Part shown: positions 566 through 9,345 of the stretch, piece after piece
Position numbering within the stretch: the first letter of the stretch is position 1
How the letters are laid out: each line of letters starts with the position of its first letter
Source of the DNA: Patescibacteria group bacterium
Lineage (GTDB): Bacteria; Patescibacteriota; Patescibacteriia; Veblenbacterales; UBA10138
Reading direction: 5' to 3'
Assembly: GCA_003512705.1 (NCBI GenBank)
Contig: DOPF01000026.1
Coordinates: 1,188 to 14,045 of the forward strand
Length of the DNA: 12,858 nt
Position numbers and translations under genes: made by a program
The notes under the pieces: model-generated
Database searches by the model: none
Seen by the model: the letters and a program-made list of their open reading frames with translations, nothing else
What the model was told of the DNA's origin: nothing

Positions 566-1279
566 TTAAGCTACTAATTTATTTTGGCTTTCCTGCGCGC
601 GGCGTGATTGCCTTAGTTTTAGATTTTCCAAAGATTGATGGTAAAAATCATCATCAGAAATTAAGCGGGTAAATTCATTTTGGTCCCGTGAGGATAATCG
701 CTTGAACCCCGTCTGTATATGGGACACGCTCTCGGCTTGCTCCGGTGTAAACTTATTAAGACGCCGCCCTTGGCCAGATTTAACATTCAAAGCTGCTTGC
801 AAAGCGTCATGCCGGGCAATTAATTCCAGCATCTGCTCGTCAACAATACTGCGAAACGGACTAACCTGTATAGGCTCATTAATTTCGCCCCGCCGCACTT
901 GATCCAACACCTCCTCCCAGTTAGGATTTAGCCAAGGAACCTCAACACCCGCTTCTCTAAGACGAAGGCCAATGTCGGCAATCGATCTTAGGCCGCTATG
1001 GCCCTTTTCTAAGATTTTTGCCCGCGATGTGTCTGGACTAGACGATAATATATTAAATAACCTTTCCACGTCTTCAAAAGCGAAACGCCGCGTTTCTGCT
1101 AATTGCGCCTTATAAAATTTTCCTTCCATTACAGGCAATTTATCTGCCGCCGTCTCCAAGTTAGTAAATAAATCCTCATCTAATTCTAAGGACTTGGGGG
1201 CTTGTTCTTTTCCCTCATAATGCCCCGCCACTTCGGTTGCCAAATCGCCCTGATCAATAGTTGGATATTCTCTAAACAT
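566..1279 (-). CDS. uncharacterised soluble 237-aa protein of the Clp operon
   Basis: I do not recognise the family. The protein is 237 aa, highly charged and predicted mostly helical, with no cysteine, signal peptide or membrane segment, so it is probably cytoplasmic. It has an acidic N-terminal part (about 1-60), a central stretch with regular Leu/Arg spacing (about 60-160), and a basic, Gln/Ser/Arg-rich C-terminal tail (about 205-237). No nucleotide-binding, metal-binding or DNA-binding motif is visible. The ATG lies 2 bp after the stop of the Clp-like ATPase, and its own stop is 1 bp before the FKBP start. This packing suggests co-translation and a shared function, for example as an adaptor or substrate-delivery factor for the ATPase. 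That is only inference. Codon use looks like its neighbours, so recent transfer is not indicated. Confidence 0.85.
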   Translation of the reverse strand: MFREYPTIDQGDLATEVAGHYEGKEQAPKSLELDEDLFTNLETAADKLPVMEGKFYKAQLAETRRFAFEDVERLFNILSSSPDTSRAKILEKGHSGLRSIADIGLRLREAGVEVPWLNPNWEEVLDQVRRGEINEPIQVSPFRSIVDEQMLELIARHDALQAALNVKSGQGRRLNKFTPEQAESVSHIQTGFKRLSSRDQNEFTRLISDDDFYHQSLENLKLRQSRRAQESQNKLVA

Positions 1280-1281
1280 AA

Positions 1282-3837
1282 TTATGATAACCTTCTAGCT
1301 TTATCTATTCTTATATTTCCCCCGGGTTCTAATACCACCACATCGCGGCGAGTTAATTTACCAGTTAATAAGTAATTGGCCAAGGCGTTATCAACCTTGT
1401 CTTGAATCGCGCGTTGTAATGGCCTAGCGCCATAAAGCGGGTCAAATCCTTCTTGCGCCAATTCTTTAACCGCCGCGTCAGTCACCCGCAAGGTTATCCC
1501 CTTGGCCGTTAAAGTTTGCCCCACCTTGTTAAGCAACAGTTTGGTAATTTTAACCACCTCGTCCATAGATAAAGGCGTAAACACAACCACGCCATCGAAA
1601 CGATTGATAAGTTCGGGCTTAAAGTATCTTTTTAAATCCGAGGTTAAAAGTTGACGACGGATAGACTCGACTGATTCCTTTTTCTGCAAACTGTCTTGAA
1701 TAATATCACCCGCCGCATTAGAAGTGGCAATAATAATAGTATTCGTAAAATCAACTGTCCGGCCAGACGCGTCGGTTAAACGGCCATCATCAAATAATTG
1801 CAAAAATACATTTAAAATATCAGAATGTGATTTTTCAAACTCATCTAATAAAATTAAGGCATAGGGCGACTGCCGTACCGCTTCGGTTAAATACCCGGTA
1901 GCTTTTCCAGTTGGCGAACCAATTAAGCGATATAAACTTTCCGGAGTTTGGTATTCGGACATATCTAACCGAATCATTTTATTTTCGCCGCCAAAGTACT
2001 CGGCCGCCACCGTTTTAGCCAATTCAGTTTTACCAACGCCGGTGGGGCCAAGAAACAAAAAAGTAGCGATTGGTCGCGCGGCTGATCGTAATTCCGTGCG
2101 CGCCCGACGCAAAGCTGCCGCCACCAAACTTACCGCCTCGTCCTGGCCAATAATTCTTTGGTGTAATATCTTTTCCAAATTCAGCAATCGCTCGCCCTCG
2201 GACTTAGACACTTGAGTAATGGGCACATTTACTTTTCCCGCTACCAACTGCGTTACATCGGCCGCCTCAATAACCGCCTGGTCGCCTTTTTTTTGCTGAA
2301 CATACACCGCCACTTCCTCACACAATCTAATAGCTTTCTCGGGTAGCCACTGATCGGGTAAATAACGGCGCGATAAATTTACCGCCTCGACCAAAGCGCC
2401 ATAAGAGAAGTATATTTTTTGCTTATACTCTATTAAACCCACCGTCGCTTCCAGAATTTGAATGGCCTGATCAGTGTCGGGCTCATTTATTTTTACTTTT
2501 TGCATCGCCCGCCCGAGCGAGGTGCCGTCTAAGTAAGCGGCAAAATCGCGAGGACTGGTAGATGAAATGGTAATTATTTTATTGTCACTAATAAAATTAG
2601 CAATGAGTTCGGCCACATCTAAATTTTCTTTACCACCGGTACTTTGACCAACCAAATTATGAACGTCCTCAATATATAGCACAATATTTCCGGCGTGCAC
2701 TATTTCATTCATGGCTTGTAATAGCCGCTGTTCCACTTCTTCGGCCGAGGCGGCGCCGCCTACTAATGTTGGCACAGATAATGATAATAATTTTTTATCT
2801 TTAAACAGTTCGGGCACATCTTCCGCTACCATCAATTGCGCAATCCCCTCCACTATGGCGGTTTTGCCAACACCCGCCTCACCCACCAATACCACACTTG
2901 ATTGCCCACCGGTGATAACTCTAAAGATTTCAGATATTTCCTTATCGCGACCCAAGCAAGGCTTTAAATAACCGTGAGCGGCTAAGTAAGTAAAATCACG
3001 GCTCATCCGGTCCAAGAGCGGTGTGGCCACGGCCAAATATGCCCGGTCAAGGGCGTAGCGCGGACGCCAGGCGGCCTTGCGGGCGCGCCGTCTTATCTCT
3101 CGACTTAGTCTTTGGCGGACCGAAAACCAAATGGTTATATTAGCAATCATATTTGGCTCAACGGCTAATTCGGCTAGGACTTCGGTGGCCAGTGACTGAC
3201 CGCGCGCAATACTCAAAATTATCTCACCCACTTCTATACTGGAACTTTTCCGTTCTAAGGCTAATTGCGCGCCCTGATTTAACGCCGCCACCACCCCCAA
3301 ACTTAAAACCGCGTCACCGCCAGTTGGTAAAGCCGAGAAAGCGCGTGACAACGTATTAAATAGTTTTTCCGGATTAACACCTAGCCGCGAAAATATCGCC
3401 TGGCCGGTACGGGTTTTGAGTGCGGCAGCTAAAAAATGAACTTCGGTAACCTCGGCATGGTTAAATTTTCGGGCATATCTAAAAGCCTCTTCTAACATTT
3501 TCCAAACTTCCGGGCTTAGATACTTTTCCACGGTGGCTGTTCCAGTAGCCTGCTGAAGTGATGGTCGACTAAGATCTTTATTAAAGCGATAAAAAATATA
3601 TCCCGCGCACAATACAAACAACCACCACCAGATCTTAATACTCGGTTCTAAAAATAACGCTTTATACACCGCCCCGCCGCTATTTAGAAAATTTATGGCT
3701 CGCCACAAAAATACCGCCACAAAAATCGCCGATAGTAGTACGATGAATCCCCCCACATACCGATACCACGCCATGCGTAAGCGTCGCGTCACCAAAGACG
3801 CGTAAGTAGGTCTAATTGTCCAAACAATCTGCGGCAT
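1282..3837 (-). CDS. membrane-anchored Clp/HSP100-type AAA+ ATPase, atypical
   Basis: Two-domain Clp-family ATPase of 851 aa. Order: basic N-terminus; two membrane helices (about 28-50 and 66-84) that leave the rest in the cytoplasm by the positive-inside rule; double Clp N-domain (about 104-235); D1 with Walker A GEAGVGKT at 319-326; D2 with Walker A GPTGVGKT at 597-604, Walker B D665-E666, sensor-1 N707, arginine finger R746 and sensor-2 R805. D2 looks active. Odd features: the D1 Walker B acidic pair is E390-D391 instead of Asp-Glu; one of the two D1 arginine fingers is Ala (R443-A444); the D1 pore motif KYRG is replaced by ASAE (363-366); the D2 pore motif GYVG is deleted (around 641-648); there is no coiled-coil M-domain between about 505 and 530; and no ClpP-docking tripeptide is seen in 708-740. 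It therefore seems neither a normal ClpC nor ClpB. The ATG abuts the stop of the upstream membrane-protein gene. Confidence 0.92.
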   Translation of the reverse strand: MPQIVWTIRPTYASLVTRRLRMAWYRYVGGFIVLLSAIFVAVFLWRAINFLNSGGAVYKALFLEPSIKIWWWLFVLCAGYIFYRFNKDLSRPSLQQATGTATVEKYLSPEVWKMLEEAFRYARKFNHAEVTEVHFLAAALKTRTGQAIFSRLGVNPEKLFNTLSRAFSALPTGGDAVLSLGVVAALNQGAQLALERKSSSIEVGEIILSIARGQSLATEVLAELAVEPNMIANITIWFSVRQRLSREIRRRARKAAWRPRYALDRAYLAVATPLLDRMSRDFTYLAAHGYLKPCLGRDKEISEIFRVITGGQSSVVLVGEAGVGKTAIVEGIAQLMVAEDVPELFKDKKLLSLSVPTLVGGAASAEEVEQRLLQAMNEIVHAGNIVLYIEDVHNLVGQSTGGKENLDVAELIANFISDNKIITISSTSPRDFAAYLDGTSLGRAMQKVKINEPDTDQAIQILEATVGLIEYKQKIYFSYGALVEAVNLSRRYLPDQWLPEKAIRLCEEVAVYVQQKKGDQAVIEAADVTQLVAGKVNVPITQVSKSEGERLLNLEKILHQRIIGQDEAVSLVAAALRRARTELRSAARPIATFLFLGPTGVGKTELAKTVAAEYFGGENKMIRLDMSEYQTPESLYRLIGSPTGKATGYLTEAVRQSPYALILLDEFEKSHSDILNVFLQLFDDGRLTDASGRTVDFTNTIIIATSNAAGDIIQDSLQKKESVESIRRQLLTSDLKRYFKPELINRFDGVVVFTPLSMDEVVKITKLLLNKVGQTLTAKGITLRVTDAAVKELAQEGFDPLYGARPLQRAIQDKVDNALANYLLTGKLTRRDVVVLEPGGNIRIDKARRLS

Positions 3838-4188
3838 TTAAAAAAATATAAAAAAGATGGCCACCGGCAAAACCGTGAGCCAGAACAATACCAACAGTAA
3901 ATACCAACCTGTCCATAAAATCAAGCGGATTAATTTATAAATAATTAAAATAAAACGCATCACCAAACTGATAGCTCGCCCCGACCATGTATAATCGGAA
4001 TACATGGGCTTAAAAAAGTACTTAAAAAACAAACCGATGGCTAATCGCTCCCAGGTGTCTTTGATGCTCTGCGCCGCCCAGTCGGCCACCATTTTAAGCC
4101 CCAAAGTGTACCACCACAACGGCCACCGCCATAAGTCGCTGATTGTTTCTAAGAGTAATTTGGAAACCTCTTCCCGTGCGTAAGTCAT
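3838..4188 (-). CDS. Trp-rich small membrane protein, first gene of the Clp operon
   Basis: Unrecognised 116-aa protein. It has an amphipathic N-terminal half containing the cluster WRWPLWWY (20-27), a short polar middle, and a strongly hydrophobic C-terminal part with probably two membrane helices (about 73-91 and 92-116) ending in the hydrophobic residues IFFIFF. Ten of 116 residues are Trp and there is no Cys. I chose the ATG at 4188; an in-frame TTG at 4203 would add five residues but lies upstream of a consensus -10 box that predicts transcription starting at the 4188 ATG. Its TAA is followed at once by the ATG of the membrane-anchored Clp-like ATPase. That tight coupling and shared membrane location suggest a partner or anchor for the ATPase (inference). 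Confidence 0.8.
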   Translation of the reverse strand: MTYAREEVSKLLLETISDLWRWPLWWYTLGLKMVADWAAQSIKDTWERLAIGLFFKYFFKPMYSDYTWSGRAISLVMRFILIIYKLIRLILWTGWYLLLVLFWLTVLPVAIFFIFF

Positions 4189-4194
4189 GGGTTT

Positions 4195-4200
4195 ATTATA
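4195..4200 (-). promoter_or_regulatory. consensus -10 box (TATAAT) for a probable leaderless transcript of the Clp operon
   Basis: On the minus strand a perfect TATAAT is followed by six bases (AAACCC) and then the ATG at 4188. With usual spacing, transcription would start at the A of the ATG, leaving no 5' leader and no ribosome-binding site. At a 17-bp spacer the -35 hexamer would be TTCCCG (4218-4223), matching TTGACA at only 3 of 6 positions, so the promoter may depend mainly on the -10 element. No Shine-Dalgarno site is present upstream of the ATG. Confidence 0.6.
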
Positions 4201-4297
4201 CAATGTTTAATTACTAGCGGGAAGAAACAAAAAAAATCAGCAATTAACAATGGCCGCCAATAATATCTTTGTTACTTTTTGTCGAATCAAAATATTA

Positions 4298-6313: not shown

Positions 6314-6350
6314 AAAAAAGGGCGCATGGTTTTTCAAACCACACACCCTT
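6314..6350 (-). terminator. rho-independent terminator overlapping the sigma-factor stop codon
   Basis: Minus-strand hairpin with a 15-bp stem (6350-6336 with 6332-6318, including three G-U pairs), a 3-nt GAA loop and a T-run to 6314. Its 5' end overlaps the TAA stop at 6351-6349. It lies tail to tail with the plus-strand terminator at 6279-6309, insulating the two convergent genes. Confidence 0.85.
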
Positions 6351-7356
6351 ATAGTTCAATTGGCTTGCCGATAATTTCTTCGGCATGGTTTATGGCATAA
6401 ATGCCATTTTTTAACAGGCTTTCGCCCAACTTACGATTCCAGCCATAATTTTCCAGTTGGCCCCAGACCCTGATTAAAATAAGCCGGATATTCTGATGGG
6501 TATAACCAAATTCATCGGCCACTTCATGGTTATTGCGTATGACCATACTGCCGTCCAAACCATACCGATGCTTAAAGATATCTAACCAATTACGAGTCTG
6601 GCAGGTAACGTGCTGTAAATCTCTCAACAATTTGCTAATTTGACTTCGCACATAATCAACCTTCTCTGATAAAAGCAACCATTCATCGGGCGACTTGGCA
6701 TAAATATCAGGTAATAAATCTAACAACTTACCATCTGAACCCACCATTCTCGGGGCATCCAAAGATATAACTGCCATCACATGATCTCCGCGCATATACC
6801 TTTCAGCGTGCCGAGCAACCACATTCGCCGCTTTACTAACAGTCTCTAGACTGAGAACGGCACCTTTTCTGACCATAAGTTTATTTATGGCCTTAGTTAC
6901 ACGCCGCTTATCATTCGTCACATTTTGAGGTATATGAACTGGATGACTTATGTTATATACAAATAAATCCATTGAACCCTTGATATGATCTTTGGCATAA
7001 GTCAAAAAATGAGTTCGACGTTGTGGACTAAACTTTACTAACGCCTTGTCCAGTCCGATTACACCTTCGCTGATAAGATCAGACCACAAAACCTGATTAT
7101 ATTTTTTGGCTACCCAAATAATAAAGCGAAGACAATGGACTATTAATTGATTCCGCGCCTCATTATCACCGTGTTTAGCCTTTCTGACTAAACGGTTAGC
7201 CTCAGTTTTACTTAAAGATGTGGTATCCTGAACGTCCACATCCAATTGAAACAATCGGAAGATATAATTGTGCGGCTGGCTAATTCGGCTGCGTGAAGAA
7301 ATTAACGGATCGGCCTTGGTAGACCGACGCGGAGTTTTTACTCGGTTGGTCTGCAT
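6349..7356 (-). CDS. divergent sigma-70 family RNA polymerase sigma factor
   Basis: Predicted to direct RNA polymerase to a set of promoters. Numbering from the ATG at 7356 (335 aa): a basic unconserved N-terminus (1-45), region 1.2/2 (about 48-144), region 3 (about 145-217), region 4 with a helix-turn-helix (about 275-296). Region 2 aligns with RpoD-type motifs (AKKYN, DLISEGVIGLDKALVKF, FLTYA). Region 2.4 differs: the paired tryptophans of the RpoD motif TYATWWIRQ are D123 and H124, giving YAKDHIKG. This form resembles alternative (group 3) sigma factors such as SigB/SigF, where the position is also not Trp-Trp. It is unlikely to be the housekeeping factor. A TTG at 7374 could add six residues; I prefer the ATG with GGTGG just upstream. 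It stands alone between terminators and so is probably transcribed by itself. Confidence 0.85.
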   Translation of the reverse strand: MQTNRVKTPRRSTKADPLISSRSRISQPHNYIFRLFQLDVDVQDTTSLSKTEANRLVRKAKHGDNEARNQLIVHCLRFIIWVAKKYNQVLWSDLISEGVIGLDKALVKFSPQRRTHFLTYAKDHIKGSMDLFVYNISHPVHIPQNVTNDKRRVTKAINKLMVRKGAVLSLETVSKAANVVARHAERYMRGDHVMAVISLDAPRMVGSDGKLLDLLPDIYAKSPDEWLLLSEKVDYVRSQISKLLRDLQHVTCQTRNWLDIFKHRYGLDGSMVIRNNHEVADEFGYTHQNIRLILIRVWGQLENYGWNRKLGESLLKNGIYAINHAEEIIGKPIEL

Positions 7357-7407
7357 GGTCCACCATATTGGCAATTGTTAAAAAAACAATGTGGATTATT
7401 CTTGCCT

Positions 7408-7458: not shown

Positions 7459-9345
7459 TTATCTCGCCACCACGCCTTTACCTTGCGCGCCGAGGTCATT
7501 ATCAAGTTCGGTGGTAACTAATTTTGCGGTGGTAATTAAATCGGCGCCCGACCAACTATCACGGGCGGTAACAGTAGTGGCCTTGGTTAGCACTAAAATT
7601 TTATCAGCATCCTGTTCGGTTGGCGTAATGGCAACTTCGAACGAGGCCTCGGGTCGCGCGAACTGAATACCCGCACCGGCCGGCAGTTTATTAATTTGCC
7701 ACACTACTTCCCTAGTATTGGGATTATAAACCACGTTTTGGCCCGCCGACACAGTTGCCTGCCCAGTCCAATTTATATCTTGCGGCAAAGTGGTGGTAAC
7801 TTCAATATTGGCGGCGTCGTTAATGGTATTGGCCAGGCGCCAAAAAATTACATAGGTAGTGGTATTACCAACTCGCGGCGGCAAAGGACCCGAACCGATT
7901 TTTACCAACTGATCAGTATAATATCTTCCCTCAACCTGCAAAGCCAGTTGGGTGTTAATTTTTGTAGTAATGGCGTTAGATTCACTTGTGACAGTTTGTG
8001 TGGTAGTACCAAAGGTCTGTTGAGCCGAGGTGGCAATTTTAGAGTCAAAACTGTATGGACCAGTAGAACCGCCCGGAGCCGTATCCACAACCGTCAATCG
8101 AAAATGGATACTGCCCTTGGCGCCGGGCGCCAAATTATTAAGCTGGGCAACTGTTTGTTTGCTCCAAATTACTTCGCCTTTATCTTCGTCCACGCTGCCA
8201 ACGGTATCGGCTTGCCAAGTGGTCCAATCAAGTAAAGTAGTATTGAGTTGAGCACGCAGCACTACATTGTTTAAGTTTGCCTCACCCTCGTTGGCATAGC
8301 GCAATTCAAAATCGATTTGCTCGCCCCAATCAGCAAAACTTTTTATGGCCACCTGATTAGCGGTTAAAGTCAAAGTTAAGTGAGATTCTATAGTATTAAC
8401 TACGGCGGTTTTTTCCTCCTGAACAGTAAAATTATTGTCACCATCAATTATACCAATGGCTACGGTAAAAGTTTGTTCGCCGGAAATAGAAGCATCGGTG
8501 AACCTGCCAACTAGGGCTAGTGTCCCCTCACTTTTGGGCGTCAAGTCTGGCAACCGCCATAAATTATCCTGGCCGACTACCGGATCGGCTGATGGCAAAT
8601 CTAATTCAAACCCACCCGGTGCCGTGAACCTAATAGCTAAATTAGATAAATCATTGGCCGAGGTATTGTTATAGGTGACCTTTAGTATTAAATCCTGATC
8701 AATGGGTAATTGCGGCGGCGTCTCTAAGGATAAATTTAACACTGACGCCACCAGTTCGGTAGCCAAAGAGCTATTGGTGGCAAACTGGCCGCGGAAATTT
8801 GTCGGCTCGTAAGTAAACACAACCGTAAATTCTTTAATATCCCCCACCTCGCCAACTAACTGACCCGTCAATTTTAACTTTCCCCCCTCACGCGCGCCCA
8901 CCCCACCTATGTCAAATCGCGTCCGATTATCGTCTAAGGCCGACAGATTAGCGTCTAATACCGTAAACCCTTCGGGATAGCGAAAGTTTAACTCTCCTGA
9001 TTTTAATGCCACCCCCTGATCGTTGTCCCACACCACCTCATATTCAACCGTTTGTCCGGAAGGTGCTTGAGTGGGCCCGGTGAACGTAATTGTTACCGTC
9101 TCTTCGCCGAATTTACCTTGATTGCTGCTGAAAAAGAAAAACCACACGCCTACCAGGGCAATAGCCACCAATAAAAAAACTGTTAAATACAACCAGGCGC
9201 GCTGATGGGCAGCGCGACGTCGTAATGTTGTAAAGTCTTCTCGCCTACCACCACGATAAATGCGCGCCAATTCCCCGCCGCGGTCGGCCGGTTGTGGCAA
9301 TGATTTTTTACTAATGGAAAGATTATCTAGATTTGGTCGCAACAT
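7459..9345 (-). CDS. single-pass surface protein with four DUF11/Ig-like beta-sandwich repeats
   Basis: 628-aa protein with a basic cytoplasmic head (1-50, rich in Arg), one membrane helix (about 51-72) and a long outer part. The outer part appears to hold four related modules of about 110-150 aa starting near residues 83, 203, 322 and 464. Each pairs an early segment of the Y-x-V/F-x-W/Y type with a later L-P-x-L/L-A-P-G segment, as in bacterial DUF11/conserved-repeat surface proteins. There is no cysteine, no LPXTG anchor and no enzyme motif. The probable role is structural or adhesive at the cell surface; partners are unknown. Low similarity between repeats makes their borders approximate. 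No Shine-Dalgarno site precedes the ATG: the region immediately upstream is a 7-bp repeat array. A strong terminator follows, so it is probably a single-gene unit or the end of the recO transcript. Confidence 0.85.
   Translation of the reverse strand: MLRPNLDNLSISKKSLPQPADRGGELARIYRGGRREDFTTLRRRAAHQRAWLYLTVFLLVAIALVGVWFFFFSSNQGKFGEETVTITFTGPTQAPSGQTVEYEVVWDNDQGVALKSGELNFRYPEGFTVLDANLSALDDNRTRFDIGGVGAREGGKLKLTGQLVGEVGDIKEFTVVFTYEPTNFRGQFATNSSLATELVASVLNLSLETPPQLPIDQDLILKVTYNNTSANDLSNLAIRFTAPGGFELDLPSADPVVGQDNLWRLPDLTPKSEGTLALVGRFTDASISGEQTFTVAIGIIDGDNNFTVQEEKTAVVNTIESHLTLTLTANQVAIKSFADWGEQIDFELRYANEGEANLNNVVLRAQLNTTLLDWTTWQADTVGSVDEDKGEVIWSKQTVAQLNNLAPGAKGSIHFRLTVVDTAPGGSTGPYSFDSKIATSAQQTFGTTTQTVTSESNAITTKINTQLALQVEGRYYTDQLVKIGSGPLPPRVGNTTTYVIFWRLANTINDAANIEVTTTLPQDINWTGQATVSAGQNVVYNPNTREVVWQINKLPAGAGIQFARPEASFEVAITPTEQDADKILVLTKATTVTARDSWSGADLITTAKLVTTELDNDLGAQGKGVVAR

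What the first reader, a model, noticed from the sequence alone, without database searches (positions are those of the whole stretch)
1282..3837. Clp-type ATPase lacking both aromatic pore-loop motifs, the M-domain and the ClpP-docking loop
Seen: D1 has ASAE where KYRG is expected (363-366). D2 goes from IGSPTG directly to KATGYLTEAV, about four residues shorter than the family and without GYVG. The segment between D1 and D2 is too short for a ClpB/ClpC M-domain, and no [hydrophobic]-Gly-Phe/Leu docking tripeptide lies in 708-740. Known: pore-loop tyrosines grip and thread substrates, the M-domain binds partners such as DnaK or MecA, and the tripeptide docks ClpP. Inferred: this membrane-anchored protein does not thread proteins in the standard way and may be a repurposed AAA+ machine (membrane remodelling, secretion, complex disassembly). 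Two key motifs are lost while the D2 catalytic residues are kept, which argues against simple decay.
Basis: partly seen in the sequence, partly recalled or inferred. Interest (0 to 1): 0.78.

Follow-up and report, generated by a model that had tools for sequence, protein, structure and literature searches.

The report
Membrane-anchored Hsp100 ATPase without pore grip
In a large group of tiny uncultivated bacteria, a relative of the ring-shaped motors that normally pull proteins through a central hole has lost most of the gripping residues, sits in the membrane and is tied to one small membrane partner protein, which suggests a motor put to a different use.

Summary
The motif observation is right and holds across the family. 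Of 152 non-redundant relatives, none has an aromatic residue at the D1 pore position and 17 have one at the D2 position; 20 of 20 sampled ordinary Clp paralogues from the same class have both. D2 catalytic residues are kept in 151-152 of 152. D1 is degenerate: Walker B DE in 18 of 152, double arginine finger in 1 of 152.

New: a ~120-residue membrane protein of no Pfam family ('c1', window 3838-4203) lies upstream in 31 of 31 class loci (30 adjacent, one an ORF away) and 77 of 80 further loci, the other three ending at contig ends. In other patescibacterial lineages it is fused to the ATPase (20 of 20 long-frame loci read; named ones are WWE3). The family splits from ClpB/ClpC with SH-aLRT 100.

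Best reading: a D2-driven, membrane-embedded Hsp100 derivative working with c1, not threading in the usual way; torsins are the nearest likeness. Family and partnership are well supported; mechanism is inferred. A hydrophobic residue before the D2 helix (Tyr649) leaves atypical threading open.

The parts
1282..3837 (-). Membrane-anchored Hsp100-type ATPase, 851 aa: N-terminal hydrophobic helices, Clp_N-like domain, degenerate D1, intact D2 motor
3571..3804 (-). Membrane-anchor region, residues 12-89: predicted helices 12-52 and 65-89; hydropathy calls one span, 27-45
2734..2763 (-). D1 pore-loop 1 segment VGGAASAEEV, residues 359-368 (ASAE = 363-366); no aromatic
1891..1917 (-). Shortened D2 pore-loop 1 SPTGKATGY, residues 641-649, GYVG lost; Tyr649 begins the next helix in the model
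3838..4203 (-). c1: 121-aa membrane partner (TTG start as listed; an in-frame ATG five codons later would give 116 aa, as in several relatives). Its stop codon abuts the ATPase start with no gap

Best explanation
The gene encodes a membrane-anchored, Hsp100-derived AAA+ ATPase that works as a fixed pair with the small membrane protein c1. D2 is the motor. D1 probably still binds nucleotide in many members but hydrolyses little or nothing in the window's class and acts as a structural or regulatory ring. With the aromatic grip of D1 gone and that of D2 mostly gone, and without ClpP- and DnaK/MecA-docking elements, the complex most likely does not pull whole polypeptides through its pore. It more likely uses D2-driven conformational change against the bilayer or membrane proteins, with c1 as the membrane-embedded working part, as torsins are thought to work without pore grips. 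Shown by computation: the family, the motif losses, D2 conservation, the c1 linkage and fusion. Inferred: hexamer, D2-only motor, non-threading work, membrane substrate.
For: D2 Walker A Lys, Walker B Asp and Glu and sensor-1 Asn in 152 of 152; D2 arginine finger and sensor-2 Arg in 151 of 152, the other being a gap. D1 aromatic in 0 of 152, D1 RR pair in 1 of 152, D1 DE in 18 of 152, against 20 of 20 intact in the sampled paralogues. c1 upstream in 31 of 31 loci and 77 of 80; fused in 20 of 20 long-frame loci read, next to the ATPase in 20 of 20 short-frame loci read. c1 and a strong ATPase match are present or absent together in 57 of 57 genomes (46 both, 11 neither). ClpP in 52 of 57 genomes of a class sample and FtsH in 53 of 57 relatives, so it does not stand in for a missing protease. 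One split apart from ClpB/ClpC, SH-aLRT 100. Model mean pLDDT 86.5 with ClpB/ClpC/ClpA folds on residues 271-847.
Against: 17 of 152 keep an aromatic at the D2 GYVG position and 123 of 152 have a hydrophobic residue before the D2 helix; D2 pore loop 2 is conserved; aliphatic pore residues can work in some AAA+ rings (recalled for p97 D1). No hexamer was modelled and no substrate is known. Fused members of other lineages mostly keep the D1 Walker B (16 of 20), so a silent D1 is not family-wide.
Confidence: 0.5

Rival explanations
1. It still threads, mainly by D2, with a shifted aromatic or aliphatic residue (Tyr649 or its equivalent) and pore loop 2, extracting membrane proteins while D1 is passive.
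For: Hydrophobic residue directly before the D2 helix in 123 of 152, aromatic in 53; pore loop 2 conserved; some relatives keep GYxG.
Against: The D2 loop is 7-9 residues in 93 of 152 against 13 in all 28 comparison proteins, and in the model Tyr649 is the first residue of a helix, so it may not reach the axis. Ten of 152 have no large hydrophobic residue in the loop. D1 has no substitute.
Confidence: 0.3
2. It is an envelope-assembly or secretion ATPase whose client is a surface protein, for instance the exported 628-aa repeat protein c2 encoded nearby.
For: The c2 cluster (628 aa at window 7459-9345) is near c1-ATPase in 16 of 31 class loci, directly beside c1 in some, also where other neighbours differ.
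Against: c2 is found in 7 of 80 further loci and 0 of 40 loci of other lineages, so it is not a general partner; those loci reach only 3.5-4.5 kb from c1.
Confidence: 0.1
3. A decaying or purely structural pseudo-ATPase.
For: D1 site and pore motifs are degenerate.
Against: D2 catalytic residues are kept over deep divergence and the c1 linkage is kept.
Confidence: 0.06
4. An unfoldase for ClpP at the membrane.
For: ClpP is present in 52 of 57 genomes of the class sample.
Against: No docking tripeptide in 149 of 152 relatives by a simple pattern; 15 of 20 sampled ordinary paralogues carry it, and the window genome's own paralogue shows IGF. The pattern may miss some ClpC-type proteins (Streptomyces P0117 shows none).
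Confidence: 0.04

Closest known systems
ClpB / ClpC / ClpA (class I Hsp100)
   Same: Fold and domain order Clp_N-D1-D2, intact D2 catalytic site, GARPL sensor 2; 35-38% identity to the ClpB/ClpC controls aligned
   Different: Predicted membrane helices, no aromatic D1 pore loop, D2 loop short, no M-domain, no ClpP loop, D1 arginine fingers gone, constant membrane partner c1
Torsins with LAP1/LULL1 (passages of PMC5425593)
   Same: Clp/Hsp100 relatives lacking aromatic pore loops, membrane-associated, dedicated partner
   Different: Torsins lack the arginine finger that their AAA-fold cofactor supplies and have one AAA+ module in the ER lumen (module count recalled); here there are two modules, D2 keeps its arginine finger, and c1 is a ~120-aa membrane protein too small for an AAA fold
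FtsH (membrane AAA+ protease)
   Same: Membrane-anchored AAA+ ring ATPase (recalled)
   Different: FtsH has a protease domain and one AAA+ module (recalled); the M41 protease domain is found in other genes in 53 of 57 of these genomes
ClpV/TssH of type VI secretion
   Same: Two-ring Hsp100 in a specialised role (recalled)
   Different: Scores 459.3 bits against a cut-off of 884.95 for that family

Membership tests
ClpB/ClpC/ClpA (Hsp100 class I) | Two AAA+ modules with Hsp100 D2-small domain | tested here: met
   PF07724, PF10431 and AAA_lid_9 over cut-off; fold match to ClpB/ClpC/ClpA over 271-847
ClpB/ClpC/ClpA (Hsp100 class I) | Aromatic pore loop in D1 (K-Y/F-R-G) | tested here: not met
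   ASAE in query; 0 of 152 relatives aromatic
ClpB/ClpC/ClpA (Hsp100 class I) | Aromatic pore loop in D2 (GYVG) | tested here: not met
   SPTGKATGY in query; 17 of 152 relatives aromatic at that column
ClpA/ClpC | ClpP-docking tripeptide | tested here: not met
   absent in query; pattern in 3 of 152 relatives, 15 of 20 paralogues, 3 of 8 controls
ClpB/ClpC | M-domain between D1 and D2 | tested here: not met
   query spacing 58 against 118-120 or 180-184 in 16 measurable of 20 paralogues; measurable in only 52 of 152 relatives, median 58
ClpB, ClpA, ClpV (NCBIfam equivalogs) | Curated whole-protein cut-off | tested here: not met
   559.7 vs 1232.1, 497.5 vs 993.15, 459.3 vs 884.95 bits
Torsin | Lacks aromatic pore loops, membrane-associated | tested here: met
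   pore loops by alignment; membrane association by prediction only; torsin feature from passages of PMC5425593
Torsin | Single AAA+ module; arginine finger missing and supplied by an AAA-fold cofactor | tested here: not met
   two modules; D2 arginine finger in 151 of 152; c1 about 120 aa

The most novel reading that the evidence does not exclude
A bacterial, torsin-like use of the Hsp100 machine spread through much of Patescibacteria: a D2-powered ring that has given up the usual threading grip and works on the membrane through a small dedicated partner, c1, with which it is fused into one protein in several lineages.
Probability: 0.35. Interest if true: 0.86.

Novelty: new variant of a known kind. 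Interest (0 to 1): 0.73.

Why it matters
Pore-loop threading is treated as the shared mechanism of Hsp100 proteins; a large clade that keeps the D2 motor but drops the usual grip would be a natural test of what else the motor can do. It also gives a testable pair, ATPase plus c1, in bacteria whose membrane biology is little known, and a comparison for torsins. Where public records name family members, the names include ClpC, ClpA and Clp protease subunit, which may mislead.

Tried and rejected
Substitute for missing FtsH or ClpP: rejected, each is present in most genomes sampled (53 of 57, 52 of 57). c2 as a general third partner: rejected as general. FKBP and the 237-aa ORF downstream as operon partners: neither falls in a cluster shared by more than two loci. 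c1 as a member of a known family: no Pfam match up to E 0.1 in 27 of 28 members and one weak TerC match (E 0.067); no PDB sequence match up to E 1. A fold for c1 alone was not predicted or searched; for the fused model the 50 Foldseek rows shown are ClpB and ClpC entries, so whether c1 has a known fold is open. Hexamer modelling was not possible, and model coordinates were not in the script box, so pore geometry was not measured. Prior print: nine searches of the held open-licence library (one search listed 12 of 26) gave no title or abstract start describing this family. Of these papers I saw listings, and passages by term search only in PMC5425593, PMC10768705, PMC7159879 and PMC11665869; in PMC10633639 the terms had no occurrence. 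None of what I saw deals with the family, PMC5425593 (torsins) serving as the comparison.

Full report
What was checked. The ORF at 1282-3837 (-) encodes 851 aa with Pfam AAA_2, D2-small, AAA_lid_9 and a Clp_N match. Its best-scoring solved relatives by sequence are ClpC and ClpB. The genome is a small assembly of 784,533 bases; its close relatives that bear names are Patescibacteria, and those of the c1 scan include Buchananbacteria, Magasanikbacteria, Falkowbacteria, Uhrbacteria and Komeilibacteria (two of its 80 record titles read Lysobacteraceae and Planctomycetota, on contigs of 3.3 kb). That these groups make up GTDB class ABY1 is recalled.

Is it a sequence error or decay? No. I collected 164 relatives: the query and 29 class loci (of 46 class genomes with a strong match), 69 named loci, 39 members of other lineages and 26 database proteins. 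After a redundancy filter 152 remained. They were selected by overall similarity or by c1, not by pore motifs. Dropped before the count: named loci without a frame over 840 aa (8 of 77), the cut-off L056 and L132, and P0020. The comparison sets are 20 ordinary Clp paralogues that I picked from the matches (all in the same class, fetched) and 8 database ClpB/ClpC proteins.

Motif results. D1 pore position: 0 of 152 aromatic, against 20 of 20 and 8 of 8. Any aromatic in the D1 loop: 8 of 152. D2 GYVG position: 17 of 152 aromatic (15 Y, 2 F), against 20 of 20 and 8 of 8. D1 Walker B DE: 18 of 152, 16 of them in the fused group. D1 double arginine finger: 1 of 152 has both, 122 have neither. D1 Walker A Lys: 130, with 21 Arg and one gap. 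D2 Walker A Lys, Walker B Asp and Glu and sensor-1 Asn: 152 of 152 each; arginine finger and sensor 2: 151 of 152 each, with one gap. This is constrained change in D1 and in the pore, not random decay.

Results against the reading. The D2 loss is graded; the residue before the D2 helix is hydrophobic in 123 of 152 and aromatic in 53, and in the query it is Tyr649. D2 pore loop 2 is retained. So a shifted grip in D2 is not excluded.

The partner. In 31 of 31 class loci a ~120-aa membrane protein, c1, lies upstream on the same strand (29 by clustering, two more by tblastn; in L045 a 310-aa ORF lies between). In a separate scan started from c1, 77 of 80 named loci have the ATPase downstream, 76 of them within 300 bases; the other three have 206, 52 and 417 bases left before the contig end. 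A c1 profile matched 131 of 379 genomes of the phylum sample and 113 of 144 of the class sample. In one search, 102 of the matching genomes lie outside the class. I read 20 of the 33 with a long frame (over 800 aa): all 20 are c1-ATPase fusions, in 8 family codes. I read 20 of the other 69: all 20 have the ATPase just downstream of c1 (L123 with a 108-aa frame between, L132 cut by the contig end). Many of the unread ones are weak matches, so the phylum count is less sure. Fused proteins with a specific name are from candidate division WWE3. In the 57 genomes, the 46 with a strong ATPase match (E at or below 9.9e-94) have c1 (44, two), and the 11 with weaker Clp matches only (E at or above 5.5e-82) or none lack it.

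Evolution. In a tree of 57 rows, without the pore and D1 Walker B and arginine-finger columns, the 30 family rows (10 each of class, fused and split members) are one side of a branch against 27 ClpB/ClpC rows, SH-aLRT 100. It is a quick tree, unrooted in effect, and some family rows have long branches; it does not settle how often fusion arose.

Context. ClpP is found in 52 of 57 genomes of a class sample and FtsH in 53 of 57 relatives. The window genome's own paralogue, seen as separate frames with masked stretches, shows GYVG and an IGF tripeptide.

Mechanism. Shown: family, motif pattern, partner. Inferred: hexamer, D2-only motor, membrane work without ordinary threading. Torsins are the nearest likeness in working terms (no aromatic pore loops, partner cofactors; passages of PMC5425593), but it is not a torsin. 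Nothing on this family was seen in the listings from the held open-licence papers.

Noticed in passing
window 7459-9345 (-): 628-aa protein with an N-terminal hydrophobic stretch and a DUF11 match; its cluster recurs near c1-ATPase in 16 of 31 class loci but in 7 of 80 further loci and 0 of 40 of other lineages.
   Followed up: partly
window 6349-7374 (-): 341-aa ORF with a weak sigma-70 region 2 match below the curated cut-off (21.6 of 24 bits).
   Followed up: no
window 566-1279 (-): 237-aa ORF without a Pfam or NCBIfam match between the ATPase and an FKBP isomerase; in no cluster shared by more than two of the loci.
   Followed up: partly
L045:5562-6491: A 310-aa ORF sits between c1 and the ATPase in one genome.
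   Followed up: no
G476:C6:61371-61712: c1 match in a 1038-aa open frame within the window's class, with one stop inside the match; possibly a separate c1-ATPase fusion.
   Followed up: no
L012, L015, L017 and most of L137-L216: N-terminal CxxC-type zinc-finger-like motif before the membrane helices, DnaJ-like by eye; absent from the query and the six other full-length relatives read from its own family.
   Followed up: partly
G000:C30 (L055): Ordinary Clp paralogue of the window genome appears as separate frames with masked stretches.
   Followed up: no
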